This document shows positions 9,655 to 27,703 of a stretch of 64,000 bases of DNA, piece by piece. Every line of letters begins with the position of its first letter. Positions within the stretch are counted from its first letter, which is position 1. Position numbers and translations under genes: made by a program. This DNA is from Oscillospiraceae bacterium (GTDB lineage Bacteria > Bacillota > Clostridia > Oscillospirales > SIG627). The notes under the pieces were generated by a model, which was not told the origin of the DNA, did not search any database, and saw nothing but the letters and a program-made list of their open reading frames with translations. Where the stretch lies: NCBI GenBank assembly GCA_015064635.1, contig SVRV01000001.1, forward strand, positions 124,001-188,000. Direction: 5' to 3'.

Positions 9655-9682
9655 TTGACATTTTCTTCAAAAGTGCTATAAT
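9655..9682 (+). promoter_or_regulatory. Sigma-A promoter of the VWA/metalloprotease gene
   Basis: TTGACA (9655-9660), a 16-nt spacer and TATAAT (9677-9682). The following AAGGAGG lies 10 nt before ATG 9722. Both hexamers are perfect, so expression may be high. Confidence 0.85.
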
Positions 9683-9721
9683 GAAAGGTAAGATTTTATC
9701 TTTTAAGGAGGAAAACAAAAA

Positions 9722-12700
9722 ATGAAATTCACACAAAGAATTACAGCGCTTGTAATCATACTTATTATGGTTATGGGCATATTGCCTTTGAATGTACTTG
9801 CGGTAAAGTCCTCGAACAAACCGGAAGGAATTGCTGTAATGCCTCTGGCAACCACAGACAAAACCGCCATAACCGATGTTGTCAAGGTTAAGGTAACGGC
9901 AATAAACGATGCAACAGGAGCAGAAGAAACGGTTCCCGGTGCAACAGTACGCCTTTTTGTGGGTACAAAGGAAAAGAAAACAGCAAAGACAGACAGTGAA
10001 GGTATTGCCACAATTTCACTTTCCGGACTTACAACCGATGAAAAGTACAAGGCAACCATTTCAGCTGACAAGGTCGTGTCCCGAGGAAAAGCCATCGACG
10101 GAACAGACCGAGATGCTTTGTATAACAAATACTATCCCAATGACGGCGGAGGCTACTACCGTTATTCTTTGGAGCTTCACTCAGAAACCATTGATAAAAA
10201 CGGAAACTGGGTGGGTGAAAAGCTACCAAAGGTTTCCTCTTCAAATAAGATAGACATGGTATTCGCAATAGATGCCACAGGCTCTATGTACGATGAAATA
10301 AACAATGTTAAAGAGAATCTCGAAGCCTTCTCAAAGCTTCTTATTGACGAAGGACTTGACATTCGATTCTGTATCATTGAGTATCTGGACATCACCACAA
10401 ATGAGTACACCGTAGTACACGAGGTTGCAGGCTCAAGATGGTACAATAATATCGACTCCGTAAAGAAAGTACTGGGAGATATAGAGCTTGGTGACGGAGG
10501 AGACTGGCCCGAAACTCCTATTGACGCACTTGGTGAAATTGCAAACTCATCGGCAATGAAGTACCGCAGTGATGCTCATAAGTTTGCATTTGTACTCACA
10601 GATGCCGGCTACAAAAATGACAATACACACGGCTACAAGGATATGAAGGATGTAACAAATGCCCTTGAAAAGCTCGGCATTGTAACCTCCGTAATCACCA
10701 CAAACTCATACAAGAGCAATTACGAGAACCTCATTGAACAGACCAAGGGTATATATGCAGACATTTATGCAAGAGATTTCAAATCCGAAATGGTAAATCT
10801 CTCGGGAAGTATTATTGATGCAGTTACACGTGAGATGGCTCTCACCCTTTCCGAACCCCGACTTCTCGTAAATATGTCAGCGTGTTATTTTGCCAATGAT
10901 AAAACATCAAAATCGTCAGACTACAAAAACAATGTCAAGAAAATGTTGAATGAGTATGCTCATCAGCTTGCTGAGACCTCTGACGGTCACGTTATGATTG
11001 ACAAAATGCTGCTTCTCACAACCGACAACCGTGCGGACTTTTACGATACAAACACCGACGCTTCAAAATGCGATATCCGTATTGAAACCGAAGAAAAAGA
11101 TGACGGAAAATGGTGGTTCAATGTACAGATACATTCCAATGCATATGTTCGCGGATTTTTCAGTGATGACACATACATCGCAGAATATAAGGACGGTAAA
11201 AAGGAACAATTTACAAATTTGAAAAACGGCTCGGAATTAGACGGAAAAAAATCATTTTACCGTATACAGATGAGCGCAAAAGAAGGCGCAGGATGGAACT
11301 ATCTGATAAGTAAAAATCCCAAAGACTATTCTTCAACAGTGCTTCACGAAACAGGTCACTATTTATTCGGCTTCTGGGACGAATATCTTAATGCTGATAG
11401 CAAAGAATGGAGTGATGTTGGCGGCAAACCAAACTCCCAGTATGGCTTGATGGATAATCAGCACATAGATATTGAAATGTCAAAAGCCTCCTCAGACTAC
11501 AGTTATATGAGTGGCAATTTTGCAGGAACTTCAAAGGATAAACATACATATCAATCCTGGAACCACAAGGAATCGTGCGAGGATTCTTTGGCACGTTTGC
11601 TTACATCCGGAACATACACCCATCTCGGTAACACAAATTCATTTGCCGGATTTTCAACGGGAAAATACAGAATCACCTACACCAAAGCACCAAACGGAAA
11701 AGACAGAAAAGCAACATATTCCTACGCAGGTCTTGAAAGCGGAGACTACATGAGCACAACCGCACACTCGGCAAGTGCCGTGACAAGTGATACTCCCCGT
11801 GCCCTTGCAATCACAGAGGGACTCTCGGGTGCGGCTGACACAACATATTTTGACTCATTCACTCGCACTGTAACATCCCTTGGAAACGTAAGCATAAAGG
11901 GAACAGACTCAAACGCTTCTTTCACCATTTCTCCTCTTGACGGATATTCATACAGCCTTTACGCAAGGAAATCGGGTGAGTCAAGCTTTACAAACATAAA
12001 ACTTACAGATGCAGGAACAACTTACACCGCAACCCTTCCCGTAGGAACAAATGCAATTGCCGAAGTACGTGTTGTGGCAACAAAGGACGGAAAGACATCT
12101 TACAACGTATACTATGTTGACCGTTCAAACAAGACAAACAAGGGATATATCTACAATTCAGCCGACAACAAGGTAATGGCATATGTTATGGCGGATGAAA
12201 ATTCCTCCTACACCTTCGTAGCAGATAACACCTCTTACACAAACGGAGAATATTTCTCCATTAATCAGGCAACCGCCATAAGCTCTGATGCGGGTATTAC
12301 AATCGACAGCGGAGAAATTTATTCCGTTGCCTCCTTCATGGCTGAAATCGACCTTAAATCAATCAGCTGGTTCAAGCTCAAGGACGGCACATGGACAAAG
12401 CTTGCAACAGATTACGCAGAAGAAGAAAACATGAATATCGGCGCAAGAGCCGACCTTCAAGGAGAGGGCACATATGTTCTCATGGCGAAAAAGCTTCCCG
12501 CATCCCCTGCCATTGCTCCCGAAAATGTATCCTACAAGAGCGCAACAGACAGAGATGCGGTTGTGACAATCTCCTTTAGCGATAAGAATACCGGAAGCAA
12601 ATACTACAACGTATATTACAGTGATAAGGAATTCACCGATAAGAATTCCGAAAATGTAATTGTTAACTCCTTCAGTGCAGATTCTACCAACCTTACCTTC

Positions 12701-13711
12701 AATCTTTACGAGCGAGGAAGAGTTGTATATGCTGCAGTCGAAATAATACTTGAAGACGGCAGAAGATCACCGCTGAGCAAGCTTATCCGCATTGAAGCGG
12801 GGGCGGCTGACTCCGACGGTGACGGAATTCCCGACTGGTACTGTGACGAGTACCGAATCTGGGGTGACGGTATTACCGATAAGGACATTGCAAAGAGTGA
12901 CGATGACGTGGATACACTCCCCAACCTTGAGGAATTCAAGAGAGGAAGCGACCCCACAAACCCCAATGATCCCTTCCATACAACAAATGTAGCTGTTACG
13001 GGACTTAATGTAACAACAAAGAAAATCACACTTGCCCCCGGTGCTACCGAGTCTGTAAGTGCAACGGTTACACCTGAGAATGCAACAAACAAGAAGGTTG
13101 ACTGGACTGTCAAGGACGAAAGCATTGCCACAATCAAAATTGAAGGAAATGTGTGCAAGATAACAGGTAAAAAAGAGGGTGCAACTCAGATTTACGCAGT
13201 TACCTCCGACGGAGGATACTCTGTGACAATAGACGTTGAAGTTAAAAAGGAAGCTCACGTCCACAACAATAAGGACGGAGCTTTGGAAAAAGACAAAACA
13301 CATCACTGGAAGGTGTGTGATGACTGTAAAGCAGAGTATGACAAAGAAGTTCACAAGGAAAGCTCCTGGATTACCGACAAGAAGGCAGAGGTGGGTAAGG
13401 CAGGTGAACGCCACAAAGAATGTACTGTTTGCGGATATGTAACAGTAAAAGAGGCAATTCCCGAGCTTACTCCCGAATCCGAGCCTGAGGAAGAAGAACC
13501 TAAGGAAGAGGAGCCAAAGCCTGAAGAAGAACCAAAATCTCCATACACACAAAACCACATCCACTCGTATTCATCGGGTGGTGGCGGAGGAGGATATGAA
13601 GTATCATCCAGCTCAAGCATTGAAGGCTGGCAGATTGCACTGATTTGCATTCTGATACTTATCCTCGTAGGCTTCATAGTAATTGTAATAATTCTCTTGA
13701 AACGCAGATAA
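9722..13711 (+). CDS. Secreted, membrane-anchored VWA protein with a CLCA-like metalloprotease motif
   Basis: A 1329-residue surface protein. Order: signal peptide (1-27); CnaB-like beta domain (about 42-110); von Willebrand A domain (about 180-370) with MIDAS residues D184-A-T-G-S188, the PETP Thr and VLTDA Asp; then a zinc-protease motif HETGHYLFGFWDEY, with His542, Glu543, His546, Asp553 and Glu554. H-E-x-x-H-x-x-x-G-x-x-D-E-Y is the signature of the animal CLCA family and its bacterial relatives, but there the protease precedes the VWA domain. Several beta domains follow, then a calcium-binding repeat DSDGDGIPDW (from 1030), a Big2 Ig-like domain (about 1090-1173), a Cys-pair region (VCDDC, CTVC), a Glu/Pro/Lys hinge, a Gly run and a C-terminal membrane helix ending KRR. 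It has its own promoter and terminator. Substrate unknown. Confidence 0.85.
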   Translation: MKFTQRITALVIILIMVMGILPLNVLAVKSSNKPEGIAVMPLATTDKTAITDVVKVKVTAINDATGAEETVPGATVRLFVGTKEKKTAKTDSEGIATISLSGLTTDEKYKATISADKVVSRGKAIDGTDRDALYNKYYPNDGGGYYRYSLELHSETIDKNGNWVGEKLPKVSSSNKIDMVFAIDATGSMYDEINNVKENLEAFSKLLIDEGLDIRFCIIEYLDITTNEYTVVHEVAGSRWYNNIDSVKKVLGDIELGDGGDWPETPIDALGEIANSSAMKYRSDAHKFAFVLTDAGYKNDNTHGYKDMKDVTNALEKLGIVTSVITTNSYKSNYENLIEQTKGIYADIYARDFKSEMVNLSGSIIDAVTREMALTLSEPRLLVNMSACYFANDKTSKSSDYKNNVKKMLNEYAHQLAETSDGHVMIDKMLLLTTDNRADFYDTNTDASKCDIRIETEEKDDGKWWFNVQIHSNAYVRGFFSDDTYIAEYKDGKKEQFTNLKNGSELDGKKSFYRIQMSAKEGAGWNYLISKNPKDYSSTVLHETGHYLFGFWDEYLNADSKEWSDVGGKPNSQYGLMDNQHIDIEMSKASSDYSYMSGNFAGTSKDKHTYQSWNHKESCEDSLARLLTSGTYTHLGNTNSFAGFSTGKYRITYTKAPNGKDRKATYSYAGLESGDYMSTTAHSASAVTSDTPRALAITEGLSGAADTTYFDSFTRTVTSLGNVSIKGTDSNASFTISPLDGYSYSLYARKSGESSFTNIKLTDAGTTYTATLPVGTNAIAEVRVVATKDGKTSYNVYYVDRSNKTNKGYIYNSADNKVMAYVMADENSSYTFVADNTSYTNGEYFSINQATAISSDAGITIDSGEIYSVASFMAEIDLKSISWFKLKDGTWTKLATDYAEEENMNIGARADLQGEGTYVLMAKKLPASPAIAPENVSYKSATDRDAVVTISFSDKNTGSKYYNVYYSDKEFTDKNSENVIVNSFSADSTNLTFNLYERGRVVYAAVEIILEDGRRSPLSKLIRIEAGAADSDGDGIPDWYCDEYRIWGDGITDKDIAKSDDDVDTLPNLEEFKRGSDPTNPNDPFHTTNVAVTGLNVTTKKITLAPGATESVSATVTPENATNKKVDWTVKDESIATIKIEGNVCKITGKKEGATQIYAVTSDGGYSVTIDVEVKKEAHVHNNKDGALEKDKTHHWKVCDDCKAEYDKEVHKESSWITDKKAEVGKAGERHKECTVCGYVTVKEAIPELTPESEPEEEEPKEEEPKPEEEPKSPYTQNHIHSYSSGGGGGGYEVSSSSSIEGWQIALICILILILVGFIVIVIILLKRR

Positions 13712-13716
13712 AGAAA

Positions 13717-13754
13717 AATGATGTAAAACCTTTTCGGGTTTTACATCATTTTTT
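13717..13754. terminator. Bidirectional terminator
   Basis: AATGATGTAAAACC (13717-13730) pairs with GGGTTTTACATCATT (13736-13750) around a 5-nt loop. T-rich tails on both strands allow it to end both the VWA gene and the convergent ceramidase-like gene. Confidence 0.9.
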
Positions 13755-13766
13755 ATGTTATTATGT

Positions 13767-15083
13767 TTAGCTCAGCTGTTCAAGAAGCTCCTTTGTAGCA
13801 GCCATTGTTTCGTCCATAAGAGTAGGTGTGAAGTTTGAGCTTGATGCCTCATAACCGCCCTGCTCAAAGGCAGCCGCTGAGGGGAGATAGCCCTGATTTC
13901 CATTTACAAGGGCAAGAGTGAGAGTGAATTTTCCGTCTGCCAATTCACGGGCAGCATTACCGTAAGCTGTGAAAGGCTCACCTGCAAAGCCAACTATTCG
14001 AATATCGCCTATGGCAACAGCGGTAATAGGAAGCTCACGGTAGAGAGGCTGTTTGCGAAGGCTTCGGATTCTTCCAAAGTTTCCGAAGTCTGACATTGAT
14101 TCTGTTCCGTCAAACTCTCCCGCTGCATGTCTGCGGAAGAATTCCATTGCTTCGTCGTAGCGCTCCATTCCTTCGCTCTTTGTCTTGTTGTAAATAGAAG
14201 TTACGGCAACCGCAACCTTACCGTCGGAATGAGGTGTTGTGCTGTTCCAGATTTCCTTTACAGTATTTGCAACTGTGCGTCCCATATACTGTGAGTATCC
14301 GTAACGACCTTTGCCTTTGTAAAAATCGCCGCCGTTATCACGGGCATAAAAGAAGTTCAAATGGTTTGAGTCTCCCTGCACACCTGTGAAAAAGATGCAG
14401 GATACATCATCGTTATCGGCTTCAACAAATTTTCTTGTAAAGCCGGGCCAGTCAGCCGAACAGCCTGTTCCGCCGATAACATCGGGGTGTGTTGAGAAGC
14501 ACACAAGAGCAATATCCTTTGCATCCTTTCTTGCAAATCGGATAAGACGTACTGTGTTATCGGGCTCTTCGCAACTCTTTACTATACGTCCAAACAGGTG
14601 AGGACGGGGATTGGTCTCAACGCTTCCGTCATCAAGGAAGTAGCGACGCACAAAGGAAATCTGCTCTGCGGTCTCTTTTTCTGCGGTTGATACTTCGCAA
14701 TCCTTCATATCGGCATAGGCAAGCTGTGCTACATCGCAGAACTTACAGTAAAGCACCTCAGCATATGCATCGCTCATGTGATATCTGTCTTCCTGATGCA
14801 TAAGTCTGAAGGAAGTATGCTGATGAATTGCGTGAAGCACTATGTTTTCTTCCTTAATGCCGAGTCTTTCACTTATTCTCTTCTGGATAAGCTTACAATC
14901 GCTTATCATAATACCAATAATATCGGCTGAAATCAAAACAATTGTGTTTTCGCCATCATTCAATGCAATTGCGTTAAGATAAAGGTTGTCCTTGATGGAG
15001 TCAAGGGTACGCTTTTCGTAATATCCGTCAAGTGGTGTGCCAAAAGGCGGTGTAATATCAAGTCTTCCAAATCCTACTTTCAT
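13767..15083 (-). CDS. Neutral/alkaline ceramidase-like protein (N-terminal domain only)
   Basis: A 438-residue protein without a signal peptide. Family blocks are FGRLDITPPFGTPLDGYY at the N-terminus, HAIHQHTSF, and STHPDVIGGTGCSADWPGFT followed by FFTGVQGDSNHLNF. They correspond to the zinc-binding and nucleophile regions of neutral ceramidase N-terminal domains. The C-terminal Ig-like domain of true ceramidases is absent. Many bacterial proteins of this kind occur in glycan-degrading species and are unlikely to act on ceramide, so only an amidase/hydrolase class is supported. Its promoter (15116-15144) and the terminator at 13717-13754 make it monocistronic. Confidence 0.75.
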   Translation of the reverse strand: MKVGFGRLDITPPFGTPLDGYYEKRTLDSIKDNLYLNAIALNDGENTIVLISADIIGIMISDCKLIQKRISERLGIKEENIVLHAIHQHTSFRLMHQEDRYHMSDAYAEVLYCKFCDVAQLAYADMKDCEVSTAEKETAEQISFVRRYFLDDGSVETNPRPHLFGRIVKSCEEPDNTVRLIRFARKDAKDIALVCFSTHPDVIGGTGCSADWPGFTRKFVEADNDDVSCIFFTGVQGDSNHLNFFYARDNGGDFYKGKGRYGYSQYMGRTVANTVKEIWNSTTPHSDGKVAVAVTSIYNKTKSEGMERYDEAMEFFRRHAAGEFDGTESMSDFGNFGRIRSLRKQPLYRELPITAVAIGDIRIVGFAGEPFTAYGNAARELADGKFTLTLALVNGNQGYLPSAAAFEQGGYEASSSNFTPTLMDETMAATKELLEQLS

Positions 15084-23431: not shown

Positions 23432-26400
23432 TTACTTAATTCTCTTCACAGCAGTTGAAAGCATAAGCTTGATACGGTTGAGCTGATTTACCTCACTTGC
23501 ACCGGGGTCATAGTCAACTGCGGCAATATTTGCATTGGGATACACCTTTTTGAGCGCCTTTATAACACCCTTACCCACTACGTGGTTGGGGAGACAGGCA
23601 AAAGGCTGAATACAAACAATATTGTCGGTTTCGTGAGTAAGAAGCTCTACCATTTCACCTGCAAGGAACCATCCTTCGCCATACTGGTTTCCGATTGAAA
23701 GGAACGGCTTTGTCATTTCGGCTATCTTTTCAATGTCAATGGGGGCAGAGAAGCGTTTGCTCTCCTTCAGTGCCTCCACAGCAGGCTTTCTCAGCCACTT
23801 CACAGCCTTGATCGCAAGCTTTGAAACAAGGTCAGCCTTCTTTGACACACCCAGATATTTGTGCTTGTATTGGTTGTTGTAGAAGCTGTAATTGAAGAAA
23901 TCGATCATGTCGGGTACGATTGCCTCTGCACCCTCTCTTTCAAGCAGTTCAACCAGATGGTTATTTGCAAGAGGCATATACTTTACAAGTATTTCGCCAA
24001 CTATTCCGACTCTCGGCTTTACTATTGTTTCGTCAAGCTCAAGAGCATCAAAGTCACGCACGATTCCGCGGCATATGTCACGGTATTTCATGTGCCCACG
24101 TGTACCCTTTATAGCTTCTATACAGATATCACGCCACTTTTCGTGAAGTGCATTCGCCGAGCCCGGAATCTTTTCATAGGGACGTGTTCTGTACAGGCAA
24201 CGCATTAACAAATCACCGTAAACTATTGCGTGAACTGCGTCAATAAGCATGCCGGGTGACAGCTTAAAGCCGGAATTCTTCTCCATTCCGTTGGTGTTGA
24301 GAGATATGACGGGAATGTGCTCAAGTCCCGCCTTTGCAAGGGCACGGCGGATAAACGCAACGTAGTTACTTGCACGGCAGCAGCCGCCCGTCTGTGTCAT
24401 AAGGATTGCAAGACGGTCGGTGTCATATTTGCCCGACAGCACCGCCTCCATTATCTGTCCCACAACAGTAATTGAGGGGAAACATGCATCGTTGTTTACA
24501 TATTTCAAGCCAACGTCAATAGCAGTGCGGTTATCGTTGTCAAGCAAAACCGCATTGTAGCCATGCTTCGTGAAAAGTGTCTTTACTATATCGAAATGAA
24601 TAGGGCTCATCTGTGGCGCAATAATGGTATAACCGCTGTCGTTCATTTCCTTGGTATATTCCTTGCGCTTGTAGGAATAGTCCCTTTTGTTTGATACAAC
24701 ACCCTCCTTACTGCGACGTTCCATTGCCGAAATAAGGCTTCTTATTCTTATTCTTACAGCACCAAGATTGTTAACCTCGTCTATTTTCAAAAGAGTATAC
24801 AGCTTACCGCTGTTTTCAAGTATTTCTCCCACCTGATCGGTTGTAACCGCATCAAGGCCGCATCCAAAGGAGTTGAGCTGAATAAGCTCCATGTCATCAC
24901 GCTTTGAAACAAAGCGTGCCGCAGAATAAAGCCTTGAATGGTAAACCCACTGGTCAACTACTCTCAAATCTCCGCCGCAAACTATGGGGAGTGAATCCTC
25001 TGTAAAGACGTTAAGTCCGTAGGAGGCAATAAGCTCGGGAATTCCGTGATTTATTTCGGGGTCAACGTGATAAGGTCTGCCCACAAGGACAATTCCACGC
25101 TCACCCGATTCGCTCATTTTATCGAGGATGCGCTTACCCTCTGCCCTTATATCATCCTTGACCTTGAGCATTTCTGCCCAGGCAAGCTTTACTGCACGTT
25201 TTACTTCGCCCGCAGGGATACTCCATTCATCCCACGCCACCTCAACAAGTCTCGACAAAACGGTCTCTTCACTTGTAAACGCAACAAAGGGACGAATATA
25301 TCTTACACTTCCGTCGCTTACCTGCTCTACGTTATTTTTAAGATTCTCGGGGTAAGAAACTACGATGGGACAGTTAAAGTGATTCTTTGCGTTTTCGTTT
25401 TCCTGACGCTCGTAGAATACACAAGGATGAAATATTGTCTTAACGCCCTCGTTTATAAGATATTGAACGTGTCCGTGAGCAAGCTTTGCGGGATAGCACT
25501 CCGATTCGGAGGGGATGGACTCCATTCCAAGCTCGTAAATCTTCCTTTCGGAAAAGGGAGAAAGCTTTACCGAGAAGCCAAGCTCATAAAAGAAGGTCGC
25601 CCAAAATGGATAATTTTCGTACATATTAAGCACTCTGGGGATACCGATAACACCACGCTTTGCCGATTCTTCCCCGTGTACGGGATAAGAAAACAGTCTT
25701 TTGCGCTTGTATTCAAAAATATTCTCCGCGCGCTTGGTCACGTCCCCCTTGCCAAGTCCCTTTTCACAGCGGTTACCCGTAATGTGACGGCGTCCGCCGG
25801 GGAAGGTGTTGACGGTGAGCATACAGTTGTTTGAACAGCCTTGACATCTGGTGCTCTTTGCTGTATATGTAAGCTCGTTTATTTCTTCAAAGGAAAGCAT
25901 TGAAGACGGTGCTCCGACATATTCGCTTCTTGCGATAAGAGCCGCACCGAATGCTCCCATAAGTCCTGCAATATCGGGGCAGGTAGCCTCAATGCCCGCT
26001 ATTTTTTCAAAGGCACGAAGCACTGCTCGGTTATGGAAGGTTCCTCCCTGAACAACTATATGTGAACCAAGCTCCTTTGCATCGGCTAATTTTATAACCT
26101 TGTAAAGGGCATTTTTTATAACCGAATAAGCAAGTCCCGCAGAGATGTCGGATACCTCCGCACCCTCCTTTTGAGCCTGCTTTACGTTGGAATTCATAAA
26201 GACGGTACATCTTGTACCCAAATCCACGGGAGCCTTTGCAAAAAGCGCCTCCTCTGCAAAGCCTTCCGCAGTATAACCGAGAGAATTTGCGAAATTTTCA
26301 ATAAATGAGCCGCATCCCGAGGAGCATGCCTCGTTGAGAAGAATATTGTCAACAGCTCCGTTTTTGAGCTTAATGCACTTCATATCCTGACCGCCGATGT

Positions 26401-27652
26401 CAAGTACGCAGTCAACACGTGGGTCGAAGAAGGATGCCGCCGTACAGTGAGCGATAGTTTCCACCTCTCCCGAATCAAGATTAAAAGCCGATTTCAAAAG
26501 TGCTTCTCCGTATCCTGTGGAGGTAGCTCTCGCTATTCTTGCATTCTTCGGAAAGAGTGCCGCCATCTCTTTTATTGCACTTTTTGCCGTTTCAATGGGG
26601 TTTCCTTTGTTATTTGCATAGTAAGAGAAGAGAAGCTCTCCTTTATCGGAAATAAGAGCAAGCTTCGTGGTGGTAGAGCCTGCATCTATACCGAGGAAGC
26701 AATCCCCCGAATATTCTGAAAGAGCTCTCTTTGCTACTCTTGCACCGCCATGTCTTTTCTTAAAGTCCTCATACTCCTTATTGGTTTTGAAAAGAGGCTC
26801 AAGACGAGGCATTTCAAAGGTAATCTCAACACCGCCCTCAAGGGTTGCAATAAGTGAGGATATACTTGTTTCCTTATCCTCTCCTGCCTCCATTGCCGCA
26901 CCCATAGCCGCAAAAAGGTGGGAGTTTTCGGGGTCAACAGTGGTTTCGTCTGTGAGTCCCAGAGTTCTGATAAATGCCGCCTTTAGCTCCGTGAGGAAAT
27001 GAAGTGGCCCTCCGAGAAATGCTACGTGACCTCTTATAGGCTTACCGCAGGCAAGTCCCGAAATAGTTTGATTTACTACCGCCTGGAAAATGGAAGCGGC
27101 AAGATCCGCCCTTGTAGCGCCCTCGTTTATAAGGGGCTGTATGTCTGTTTTTGCAAAAACTCCGCAGCGTGCCGCTATGGGATATATAACCTTATAATCC
27201 TTTGCTTCAATGTTAAGATGCTCGGCATCAGTCTGCAGAAGCGATGCCATCTGGTCAATGAAAGAGCCTGTACCGCCGGCACATACGCCGTTCATACGCT
27301 CCTCAAGACCTCCGTCGAAATATATAATCTTTGCATCCTCACCGCCAAGCTCGATGGCTACATCAGTCTCGGGTGCTATCCTTTGGAGAGCTGATGCTAC
27401 TGCCACAACCTCCTGAACAAAGCCTATATTCATCGCTTTGGACAGATTTATGGCTCCTGAGCCTGTGATTCTTACTTTGAGTAAGCACTCACCAAGCTTT
27501 TCCCTCGCGGAGATAAGAAGAGCCTTCAAGGTCTCCTTTGTCTGAGCGTTGTGACGGGTATACTCGCCGTATATTATACTGTCTTTTTCGTCAAGTATCG
27601 TTAGCTTGACCGTGGTTGAACCTATATCTATGCCTGCGCGGTAAATCTGCAT
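23432..27652 (-). CDS. 2-hydroxyacyl-CoA dehydratase activase-like fusion (BadF/BadG/BcrA/BcrD family)
   Basis: A 1406-residue protein. Two ASKHA-type ATPase domains lie in tandem: the first begins RAGIDIGSTTVKLTILDE and has GVCAGGTGSFIDQMA; the second begins FLGIDAGSTTTKLALIS and has EACSSGCGSFIENFA. The Cys residues match the ligands of the bridging 4Fe-4S cluster in HgdC-type activases. A Cys cluster (CQGCSNNC) follows at about 625 and the C-terminal half is dehydratase-related (COG3580/3581 type). Such activases inject an electron with ATP hydrolysis into dehydratases, but the long fusion has no defined substrate. ATG 27652 has AAGGAG upstream; an in-frame start at 27700 would fall at the transcription start of the promoter at 27704-27732. 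Confidence 0.87.
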   Translation of the reverse strand: MQIYRAGIDIGSTTVKLTILDEKDSIIYGEYTRHNAQTKETLKALLISAREKLGECLLKVRITGSGAINLSKAMNIGFVQEVVAVASALQRIAPETDVAIELGGEDAKIIYFDGGLEERMNGVCAGGTGSFIDQMASLLQTDAEHLNIEAKDYKVIYPIAARCGVFAKTDIQPLINEGATRADLAASIFQAVVNQTISGLACGKPIRGHVAFLGGPLHFLTELKAAFIRTLGLTDETTVDPENSHLFAAMGAAMEAGEDKETSISSLIATLEGGVEITFEMPRLEPLFKTNKEYEDFKKRHGGARVAKRALSEYSGDCFLGIDAGSTTTKLALISDKGELLFSYYANNKGNPIETAKSAIKEMAALFPKNARIARATSTGYGEALLKSAFNLDSGEVETIAHCTAASFFDPRVDCVLDIGGQDMKCIKLKNGAVDNILLNEACSSGCGSFIENFANSLGYTAEGFAEEALFAKAPVDLGTRCTVFMNSNVKQAQKEGAEVSDISAGLAYSVIKNALYKVIKLADAKELGSHIVVQGGTFHNRAVLRAFEKIAGIEATCPDIAGLMGAFGAALIARSEYVGAPSSMLSFEEINELTYTAKSTRCQGCSNNCMLTVNTFPGGRRHITGNRCEKGLGKGDVTKRAENIFEYKRKRLFSYPVHGEESAKRGVIGIPRVLNMYENYPFWATFFYELGFSVKLSPFSERKIYELGMESIPSESECYPAKLAHGHVQYLINEGVKTIFHPCVFYERQENENAKNHFNCPIVVSYPENLKNNVEQVSDGSVRYIRPFVAFTSEETVLSRLVEVAWDEWSIPAGEVKRAVKLAWAEMLKVKDDIRAEGKRILDKMSESGERGIVLVGRPYHVDPEINHGIPELIASYGLNVFTEDSLPIVCGGDLRVVDQWVYHSRLYSAARFVSKRDDMELIQLNSFGCGLDAVTTDQVGEILENSGKLYTLLKIDEVNNLGAVRIRIRSLISAMERRSKEGVVSNKRDYSYKRKEYTKEMNDSGYTIIAPQMSPIHFDIVKTLFTKHGYNAVLLDNDNRTAIDVGLKYVNNDACFPSITVVGQIMEAVLSGKYDTDRLAILMTQTGGCCRASNYVAFIRRALAKAGLEHIPVISLNTNGMEKNSGFKLSPGMLIDAVHAIVYGDLLMRCLYRTRPYEKIPGSANALHEKWRDICIEAIKGTRGHMKYRDICRGIVRDFDALELDETIVKPRVGIVGEILVKYMPLANNHLVELLEREGAEAIVPDMIDFFNYSFYNNQYKHKYLGVSKKADLVSKLAIKAVKWLRKPAVEALKESKRFSAPIDIEKIAEMTKPFLSIGNQYGEGWFLAGEMVELLTHETDNIVCIQPFACLPNHVVGKGVIKALKKVYPNANIAAVDYDPGASEVNQLNRIKLMLSTAVKRIK

Positions 27653-27703
27653 TTGATTCTCCTTCGTTTTGCAAAAAACTGTATTGATAGAATAACTCAA
27701 TAT

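What the first reader, a model, noticed from the sequence alone, without database searches (positions are those of the whole stretch)
9722..13711. VWA domain and CLCA-like metalloprotease motif in one bacterial surface protein, in reversed order
Seen: signal peptide, a VWA domain with MIDAS-type D184-x-T-x-S188, then HETGHYLFGFWDEY (His542-Glu543-His546, Asp553-Glu554), calcium-binding and Ig-like repeats, and a C-terminal anchor. The H-E-x-x-H-x-x-x-G-x-x-D-E-Y string is the CLCA zinc-protease signature. In CLCA the protease comes before the VWA domain; here it comes after. It may be a self-processing or host-glycoprotein-targeting surface protease and could represent a new arrangement of the two modules.
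Basis: partly seen in the sequence, partly recalled or inferred. Interest (0 to 1): 0.72.

Follow-up and report, generated by a model that had tools for sequence, protein, structure and literature searches.

The report
VWA-first CLCA-like bacterial surface metalloprotease
A gut-type Clostridia bacterium carries a large surface-anchored zinc protease, related to the animal mucus protein CLCA1 and to gut-bacterial IgA proteases, in which a ligand-binding VWA domain sits in front of the protease and appears to have been added independently of the VWA that follows the protease in CLCA proteins.

Summary
ORF 9722-13711 encodes a 1329-aa secreted protein with VWA (res 176-367), then a zinc-protease motif HETGHYLFGFWDEY (542-555), beta domains, a DxDGDG calcium-type repeat, Big_2, and a C-terminal TM anchor. 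The protease region is a remote relative of the CLCA_N domain (profile E 1e-20 to bacterial CLCA-order proteins). It has a near-invariant Met-turn and a metzincin-like predicted fold, and its zinc motif has the spacing of M64 IgA proteases. It is not a Pfam CLCA or M64 member. These four form one clade inside a VWA-less branch. Two close relatives lack VWA, with a clean gap. The front VWA is closer to VWAs of protease-free Clostridia proteins than to CLCA VWAs. So this is an independent fusion, not a reversed CLCA. Relatives swap the C-terminal anchor (TM, three SLH, dockerin), pointing to a cell-surface endopeptidase with a docking module. Self-cleavage and host-glycoprotein targeting have no direct evidence. 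New variant of a known kind.

The parts
9655..9682 (+). sigma-A type promoter TTGACA-16-TATAAT with TG extension
   Evidence: 12 of 12 consensus matches; function not tested
9722..13711 (+). whole gene, 1329 aa
   Evidence: ribosome-binding site 9705-9711
9722..9802 (+). signal peptide, about residues 1-27
   Evidence: positively charged start plus hydrophobic run; no dedicated predictor available
9869..10231 (+). N-terminal all-beta (Ig/MG-like) domain, residues ~50-170, ending LHSETID.NGNW.G
   Evidence: weak CarboxypepD_reg match; conserved with and without VWA (A3; 23% of columns invariant)
10247..10822 (+). VWA domain, residues 176-367
   Evidence: Pfam VWA_4 E 2.3e-8; relatives also PF00092; integrin betaI folds among the structure matches (low-confidence model)
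10271..10285 (+). MIDAS motif 1, D184-A-T-G-S188
   Evidence: conserved D-x-T-G-S in four VWA-first proteins; loop-2 Thr is Trp262 here
10841..11641 (+). CLCA-like zinc metalloprotease domain, residues ~374-640
   Evidence: hhalign to bacterial CLCA-order proteins prob 99.3, E 1e-20 over 213 columns; AF2 pLDDT 71.7, pTM 0.77; Foldseek top 50 all metzincin metalloproteases, best E 2e-3
11345..11386 (+). zinc-binding and catalytic motif HETGHYLFGFWDEY, residues 542-555
   Evidence: invariant in A2, A4, A5 and A6, partly by construction because the pattern selected the sequences
11444..11455 (+). Met-turn G575-L-M577-D
   Evidence: Met invariant in 30-sequence A2, A4, A5 and A6; not part of the selecting pattern
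12032..12808 (+). downstream beta domains, residues ~771-1029 (GYxY...WFK...GARADL... and Fn3-like)
   Evidence: conserved in all six relatives, 35-61% identity over residues 771-960
12809..12976 (+). calcium-type TSP3-like repeat DSDGDGIPDWY...DPTNPNDP, residues 1030-1085
   Evidence: sequence; weak TSP3_bac match at the same place in L100
12992..13231 (+). Big_2 Ig-like domain, residues 1091-1170
   Evidence: Pfam E 4.9e-13
13253..13471 (+). two-CxxC module, residues ~1178-1250
   Evidence: matches the C-terminal repeats of IgA protease 9qa6 (22-28 bits)
13472..13561 (+). Pro/Glu/Lys-rich wall-spanning stalk
   Evidence: sequence
13628..13708 (+). C-terminal transmembrane anchor with LLKRR tail
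   Evidence: hydropathy up to 3.8
13713..13754 (+). intrinsic terminator-like hairpin
   Evidence: 19-pair stem and T run

Best explanation
A secreted, surface-tethered zinc endopeptidase of a CLCA/igalysin-like branch of the metzincins. Inferred chemistry: His542, His546 and Asp553 hold the zinc, Glu543 activates water, and Met577 forms the Met-turn under the site. Downstream beta domains probably brace the catalytic domain, as the wrapping domain does in IgAse. The VWA, inserted between the N-terminal beta domain and the protease, is a ligand-docking module recruited independently of the CLCA VWA; it would bring or hold an extracellular protein near the active site. The C-terminal anchor keeps the enzyme at the surface, so its main work is most likely on extracellular proteins in the animal gut rather than self-release. 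Shown: domain order, conserved catalytic residues, homology to CLCA-order proteases, VWA presence/absence, anchor swapping. Inferred: proteolytic activity, the VWA's docking role, the substrate.
For: Protease homology to bacterial CLCA-order proteins (hhalign E 1e-20) and to a VWA-less sister branch (E 3e-32). Zinc motif spacing identical to IgAse H539E540xxH543xxxG547xxD550E551Y552, where D550 is the third ligand (PMC12237041). Met-turn invariant although not selected for. Predicted fold retrieves metzincins only in the top 50. Full-length relatives L088 and L048 at 53% identity share the order. L082 and L100 lack exactly the VWA. VWA-first clade is single, support 94, inside a VWA-less branch. 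Front VWA groups with protease-free Clostridia VWAs, 99. Anchors differ: TM in the window, three SLH in L048/L166, dockerin in L088. Relatives come from sheep jejunum, sheep rumen, goat rectum and rabbit samples.
Against: No biochemical evidence. Foldseek E-values are weak (best 2e-3) and the model has low-confidence stretches. Pfam CLCA and M64 models do not detect the domain. The MIDAS is incomplete in the window (Trp262), so metal-dependent ligand binding by the VWA is uncertain. The VWA comparison set was found by similarity to the window VWA, which favours the grouping seen. The trees are quick-method.
Confidence: 0.66

Rival explanations
1. Self-cleaving adhesin, as in CLCA: the protease cuts its own chain in the downstream beta region, leaving or releasing a VWA-bearing ectodomain.
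For: CLCA1 and CLCA2 self-cleave near residue 700, dependent on the HExxH Glu (PMC10669480). The protease domain is related. The linker 641-770 is poorly conserved (2% invariant) and could hold a cleavable loop.
Against: CLCA cuts after its VWA in a BSR/Fn3 layout not reproduced here; no conserved cleavage site seen; VWA-less relatives keep the protease and downstream domains; the anchors are retained and swapped, so release is not obviously selected.
Confidence: 0.17
2. True CLCA gene whose modules were rearranged so that its VWA moved to the front.
For: Both modules are present and the motif matches the CLCA consensus (PMC3650047).
Against: Front VWA lies with protease-free Clostridia VWAs, apart from 53 CLCA-order VWAs; protease sits in a branch without VWA-after members; two near relatives lack VWA.
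Confidence: 0.07
3. Non-enzymatic adhesin: a dead protease fold used as a spacer next to the VWA.
For: CLCA families include substituted active sites (PMC3650047).
Against: All zinc and catalytic residues are intact in the window and in every close relative, though the search pattern required them in the relatives.
Confidence: 0.08
4. Processing enzyme for the bacterium's own surface proteins or scaffold complexes rather than host or dietary proteins (overlaps with the main explanation; differs in the substrate).
For: Dockerin in L088 and L082 and SLH in L048 place relatives in bacterial surface assemblies.
Against: No conserved neighbour substrate found; the gene stands alone between a Na/Pi transporter and a ceramidase-like gene.
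Confidence: 0.25

Closest known systems
CLCA family (Pfam PF08434, CLCA_N; CLCA1-4 and prokaryotic homologues, Lenart et al. 2013 PMC3650047)
   Same: HExxHxxxGxxDEY signature, Met-turn-bearing zinc protease domain, a VWA and beta domains in one secreted protein; significant profile similarity.
   Different: VWA before rather than after the protease; a different VWA subfamily; no PF08434 hit; no Cys-rich segment; TSP3-like repeat, Big_2 and a bacterial anchor instead of the CLCA tail.
Peptidase M64 / igalysins (IgAse of Thomasclavelia ramosa, PDB 9qa6, 9qdh, 9ekk; 3P1V)
   Same: Identical spacing of the zinc motif, Met-turn, membrane-anchored multidomain gut Firmicutes protein, similar C-terminal CxxC module.
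   Different: No VWA described in IgAse; the three-Cys structural zinc site is absent here; PF09471 does not match; only motif-level sequence similarity in the catalytic domain.
VWA-less CLCA-like proteins of Bacteroidota, Ignavibacteria, Planctomycetes and others (L018, L028, L036, L057 ...)
   Same: Nearest large protease branch, with YGFMD Met-turn and EMS motif.
   Different: No VWA detected; different accessory domains (Por_Secre_tail, SBBP, FGE-sulfatase).
Canonical CLCA in the same bacterial class (L016, genome G464)
   Same: Same motif, VWA, host of the same class.
   Different: PF08434 above cut-off (58 bits), then VWA, then GBD_Hemicentin: the ordinary CLCA order.

Membership tests
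CLCA (PF08434) | HExxHxxxGxxDEY active-site signature | tested here: met
   residues 542-555; consensus in PMC3650047
CLCA (PF08434) | match to the curated CLCA_N profile | tested here: not met
   no hit for the whole protein or protease region, nor in the own-genome search
CLCA (PF08434) | protease N-terminal, followed by VWA, beta and Fn3 domains | tested here: not met
   VWA 176-367 precedes protease 374-640; no VWA after it
CLCA (PF08434) | Cys-rich segment after the protease core | tested here: not met
   Cys only at 388, 450 and 619 between residues 217 and 1041
CLCA (PF08434) | homology of the catalytic domain to bacterial CLCA-order proteins | tested here: met
   hhalign prob 99.3, E 1e-20, 213 columns
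CLCA (PF08434) | zinc- and Glu-dependent self-cleavage | not testable with these tools
   needs expressed protein
Peptidase M64 (igalysins) | zinc motif HExxHxxxGxxDEY with Asp as third ligand | tested here: met
   same spacing as IgAse H539...Y552 (PMC12237041); ligation itself inferred
Peptidase M64 (igalysins) | structural zinc site: Glu of DEY plus three Cys, one opening the Met-turn | tested here: not met
   Met-turn is GLMD and no Cys occurs at 575 or in the following 40 residues
Peptidase M64 (igalysins) | match to PF09471 | tested here: not met
   family search in own and class genomes empty
Metzincin clan | HExxHxxG/NxxH/D zinc motif | tested here: met
   met with one extra residue before Gly, as in igalysins
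Metzincin clan | Met-turn downstream of the third ligand | tested here: met
   Met577 invariant in four alignments
Metzincin clan | metzincin fold | tested here: inconclusive
   top 50 PDB matches are all metzincins but best E is 2e-3 and TM-scores are low
VWA domain | match to a VWA profile above cut-off | tested here: met
   PF25106 34.2 bits vs 27
VWA domain | complete MIDAS (DxS/TxS, Thr, Asp) | tested here: not met
   D184/T186/S188 and D294 present; loop-2 Thr is Trp262. The residue equivalence is by alignment to relatives, and VWA family membership does not require a MIDAS

The most novel reading that the evidence does not exclude
A gut-Clostridia protease family in which a MIDAS-type VWA was independently fused in front of a CLCA-like metalloprotease, evolving convergently with animal CLCA1 and gut IgA proteases, and using the VWA as an exchangeable substrate-capture module for a specific host mucosal protein.
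Probability: 0.2. Interest if true: 0.7.

Novelty: new variant of a known kind. Interest (0 to 1): 0.42.

Why it matters
It shows that VWA and a CLCA-like protease were probably joined at least twice, which hints that the pairing itself is useful. It also makes the VWA's role testable, because natural relatives exist with and without it. The organisms are gut-type Clostridia, and the nearest solved enzymes cut IgA. The survey shows CLCA-like proteases in many more bacterial phyla than the 2013 survey listed, which weakens its argument, from scarcity in bacteria, for metazoan-to-bacteria transfer.

Tried and rejected
One search used a DNA pattern off by one base (it missed the window itself) and is ignored; one search is the corrected search. 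Protein searches of plasmids, phages and a first genome-contig scan gave nothing; the viral contigs pattern scan gave nothing. M64 family search in 148 class genomes: no match. The 1062-residue model is too poor (pLDDT 53, protease mostly under 50) to place the VWA against the active site; its integrin and contactin matches are used only as a sign of VWA and beta-sandwich content. L064's score with the CLCA-VWA profile (73 bits) is circular, since L064 had entered that profile. Conservation of the HExGHYxxGxxDEY residues among pattern hits is by construction; only the Met-turn and flanking columns count as evidence. L082 is binned as Bacteroides but carries a dockerin and groups with Clostridia, so its taxonomy is doubtful. 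The 'none' class includes proteins cut by contig ends, so VWA-after is undercounted. The careful protease tree did not finish; the quick tree is reported. Searches for papers describing VWA-first CLCA-like proteins found none beyond PMC3650047, which mentions other prokaryotic architectures; its figures could not be seen, so I cannot exclude that this order is drawn there.

Full report
Observation. The ORF at 9722-13711 is real: 1329 aa, a good ribosome-binding site, a perfect sigma-70-type promoter match at 9655-9682 and a strong terminator-like hairpin just after the stop, so it is probably its own transcription unit. Neighbours are a two-component system, an HD-domain protein, a Na/Pi cotransporter, and on the other strand a ceramidase-like protein and a nitroreductase; nothing links them to it. 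Five other genomes of the genus lack it; their matches are only to Big_2 or the CxxC module.

Anatomy. Signal peptide; N-terminal beta domain; VWA (Pfam VWA_4); protease with HETGHYLFGFWDEY at 542-555; beta domains; DxDGDG repeat; Big_2; a two-CxxC module like that in the IgA protease 9qa6; charged stalk; TM anchor. The MIDAS is D184, T186, S188 and D294, but the loop-2 Thr is Trp262 in this protein, Ala in L048, Thr in L088 and L064.

Protease identity. Pfam gives nothing for the region. Profile comparison of the window's Clostridia group with bacterial CLCA-order proteins gives probability 99.3, E 1e-20 over 213 columns, and with a VWA-less group 99.9, E 3e-32. A Met downstream, outside the search pattern, is invariant in every alignment made, as expected of a metzincin Met-turn. 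AlphaFold on 30 sequences gave pLDDT 71.7, pTM 0.77, and all top 50 PDB matches are metzincins, though weakly (best E 2e-3). By sequence profile the only significant solved relatives are IgA proteases (E 2e-4). IgAse's motif has the same spacing, with Asp550 as third zinc ligand and Glu551 on a three-Cys structural zinc (PMC12237041); the window protein has no such Cys set. So it is a CLCA/igalysin-like metzincin, not a proven member of either family.

Domain order. With VWA profiles run over the 119 proteins, 54 have VWA after the motif, 4 before, 61 none; Pfam on samples agrees. The four VWA-first proteins are the window, L048, L064 and L088. L082 and L100 match the window on both sides of the VWA and lack it. 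In the protease tree the four form one clade (support 94) inside a Clostridia group (98) inside a branch of 40 without any VWA-after member (100) (quick method). In the VWA tree the front VWAs group with VWAs of protease-free proteins from the same order, apart from 53 CLCA-order VWAs (99); those free VWAs were found by similarity to the window, but they are still nearer to it than any CLCA VWA. The simplest reading is one gain of a local Clostridia VWA. A canonical CLCA, in ordinary order and above the Pfam cut-off, occurs in the same bacterial class (L016).

Function. Relatives keep the ectodomain but change the anchor: TM here, three SLH in L048, dockerin in L088. This favours an enzyme held at the surface. 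The domain at 771-960 is as conserved as the protease, which suggests a structural partnership like the IgAse wrapping domain. Relatives' samples include sheep jejunum and rumen, goat rectum and rabbit (the rabbit reading rests on the isolate name Lapin-004). Substrate, activity and self-cleavage are untested; CLCA2 self-cleavage (PMC10669480) is a reason to test, not evidence.

Known versus new. Lenart et al. 2013 (PMC3650047) described prokaryotic CLCAs in the animal domain order and some with other architectures; in the literature text held here I found no report of a VWA-first form. It is a new variant of a known kind.

Noticed in passing
L016 (G464, same class as the window's genome), minus strand 1-1791: A canonical CLCA (PF08434 58 bits, VWA, GBD_Hemicentin) in a genome of the window's class; the 2013 survey's table of prokaryotic CLCA_N carriers listed no Firmicutes.
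   Followed up: partly
L018-L134: HExxHxxxGxxDEY CLCA-like proteases occur in many bacterial phyla (Chloroflexota, Planctomycetota, Bacteroidota, Geobacteraceae, Betaproteobacteria and others) and a Thermoplasmata archaeon, far more widely than earlier described.
   Followed up: partly
window 13767-15083 minus strand: Ceramidase-like protein; the genome holds five matches to it, and four of the five other genomes of the genus have several.
   Followed up: partly
window 13253-13471 (residues ~1178-1250): Two-CxxC module shared with the C-terminal repeats of the T. ramosa IgA protease (PDB 9qa6); function unknown to me.
   Followed up: no
L088 and L082, C-terminal halves: Dockerin type I domains on relatives of this protease, suggesting attachment to cohesin-bearing scaffolds.
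   Followed up: no
window 23432-27700 minus strand: Long 1422-aa ORF, not examined.
   Followed up: no
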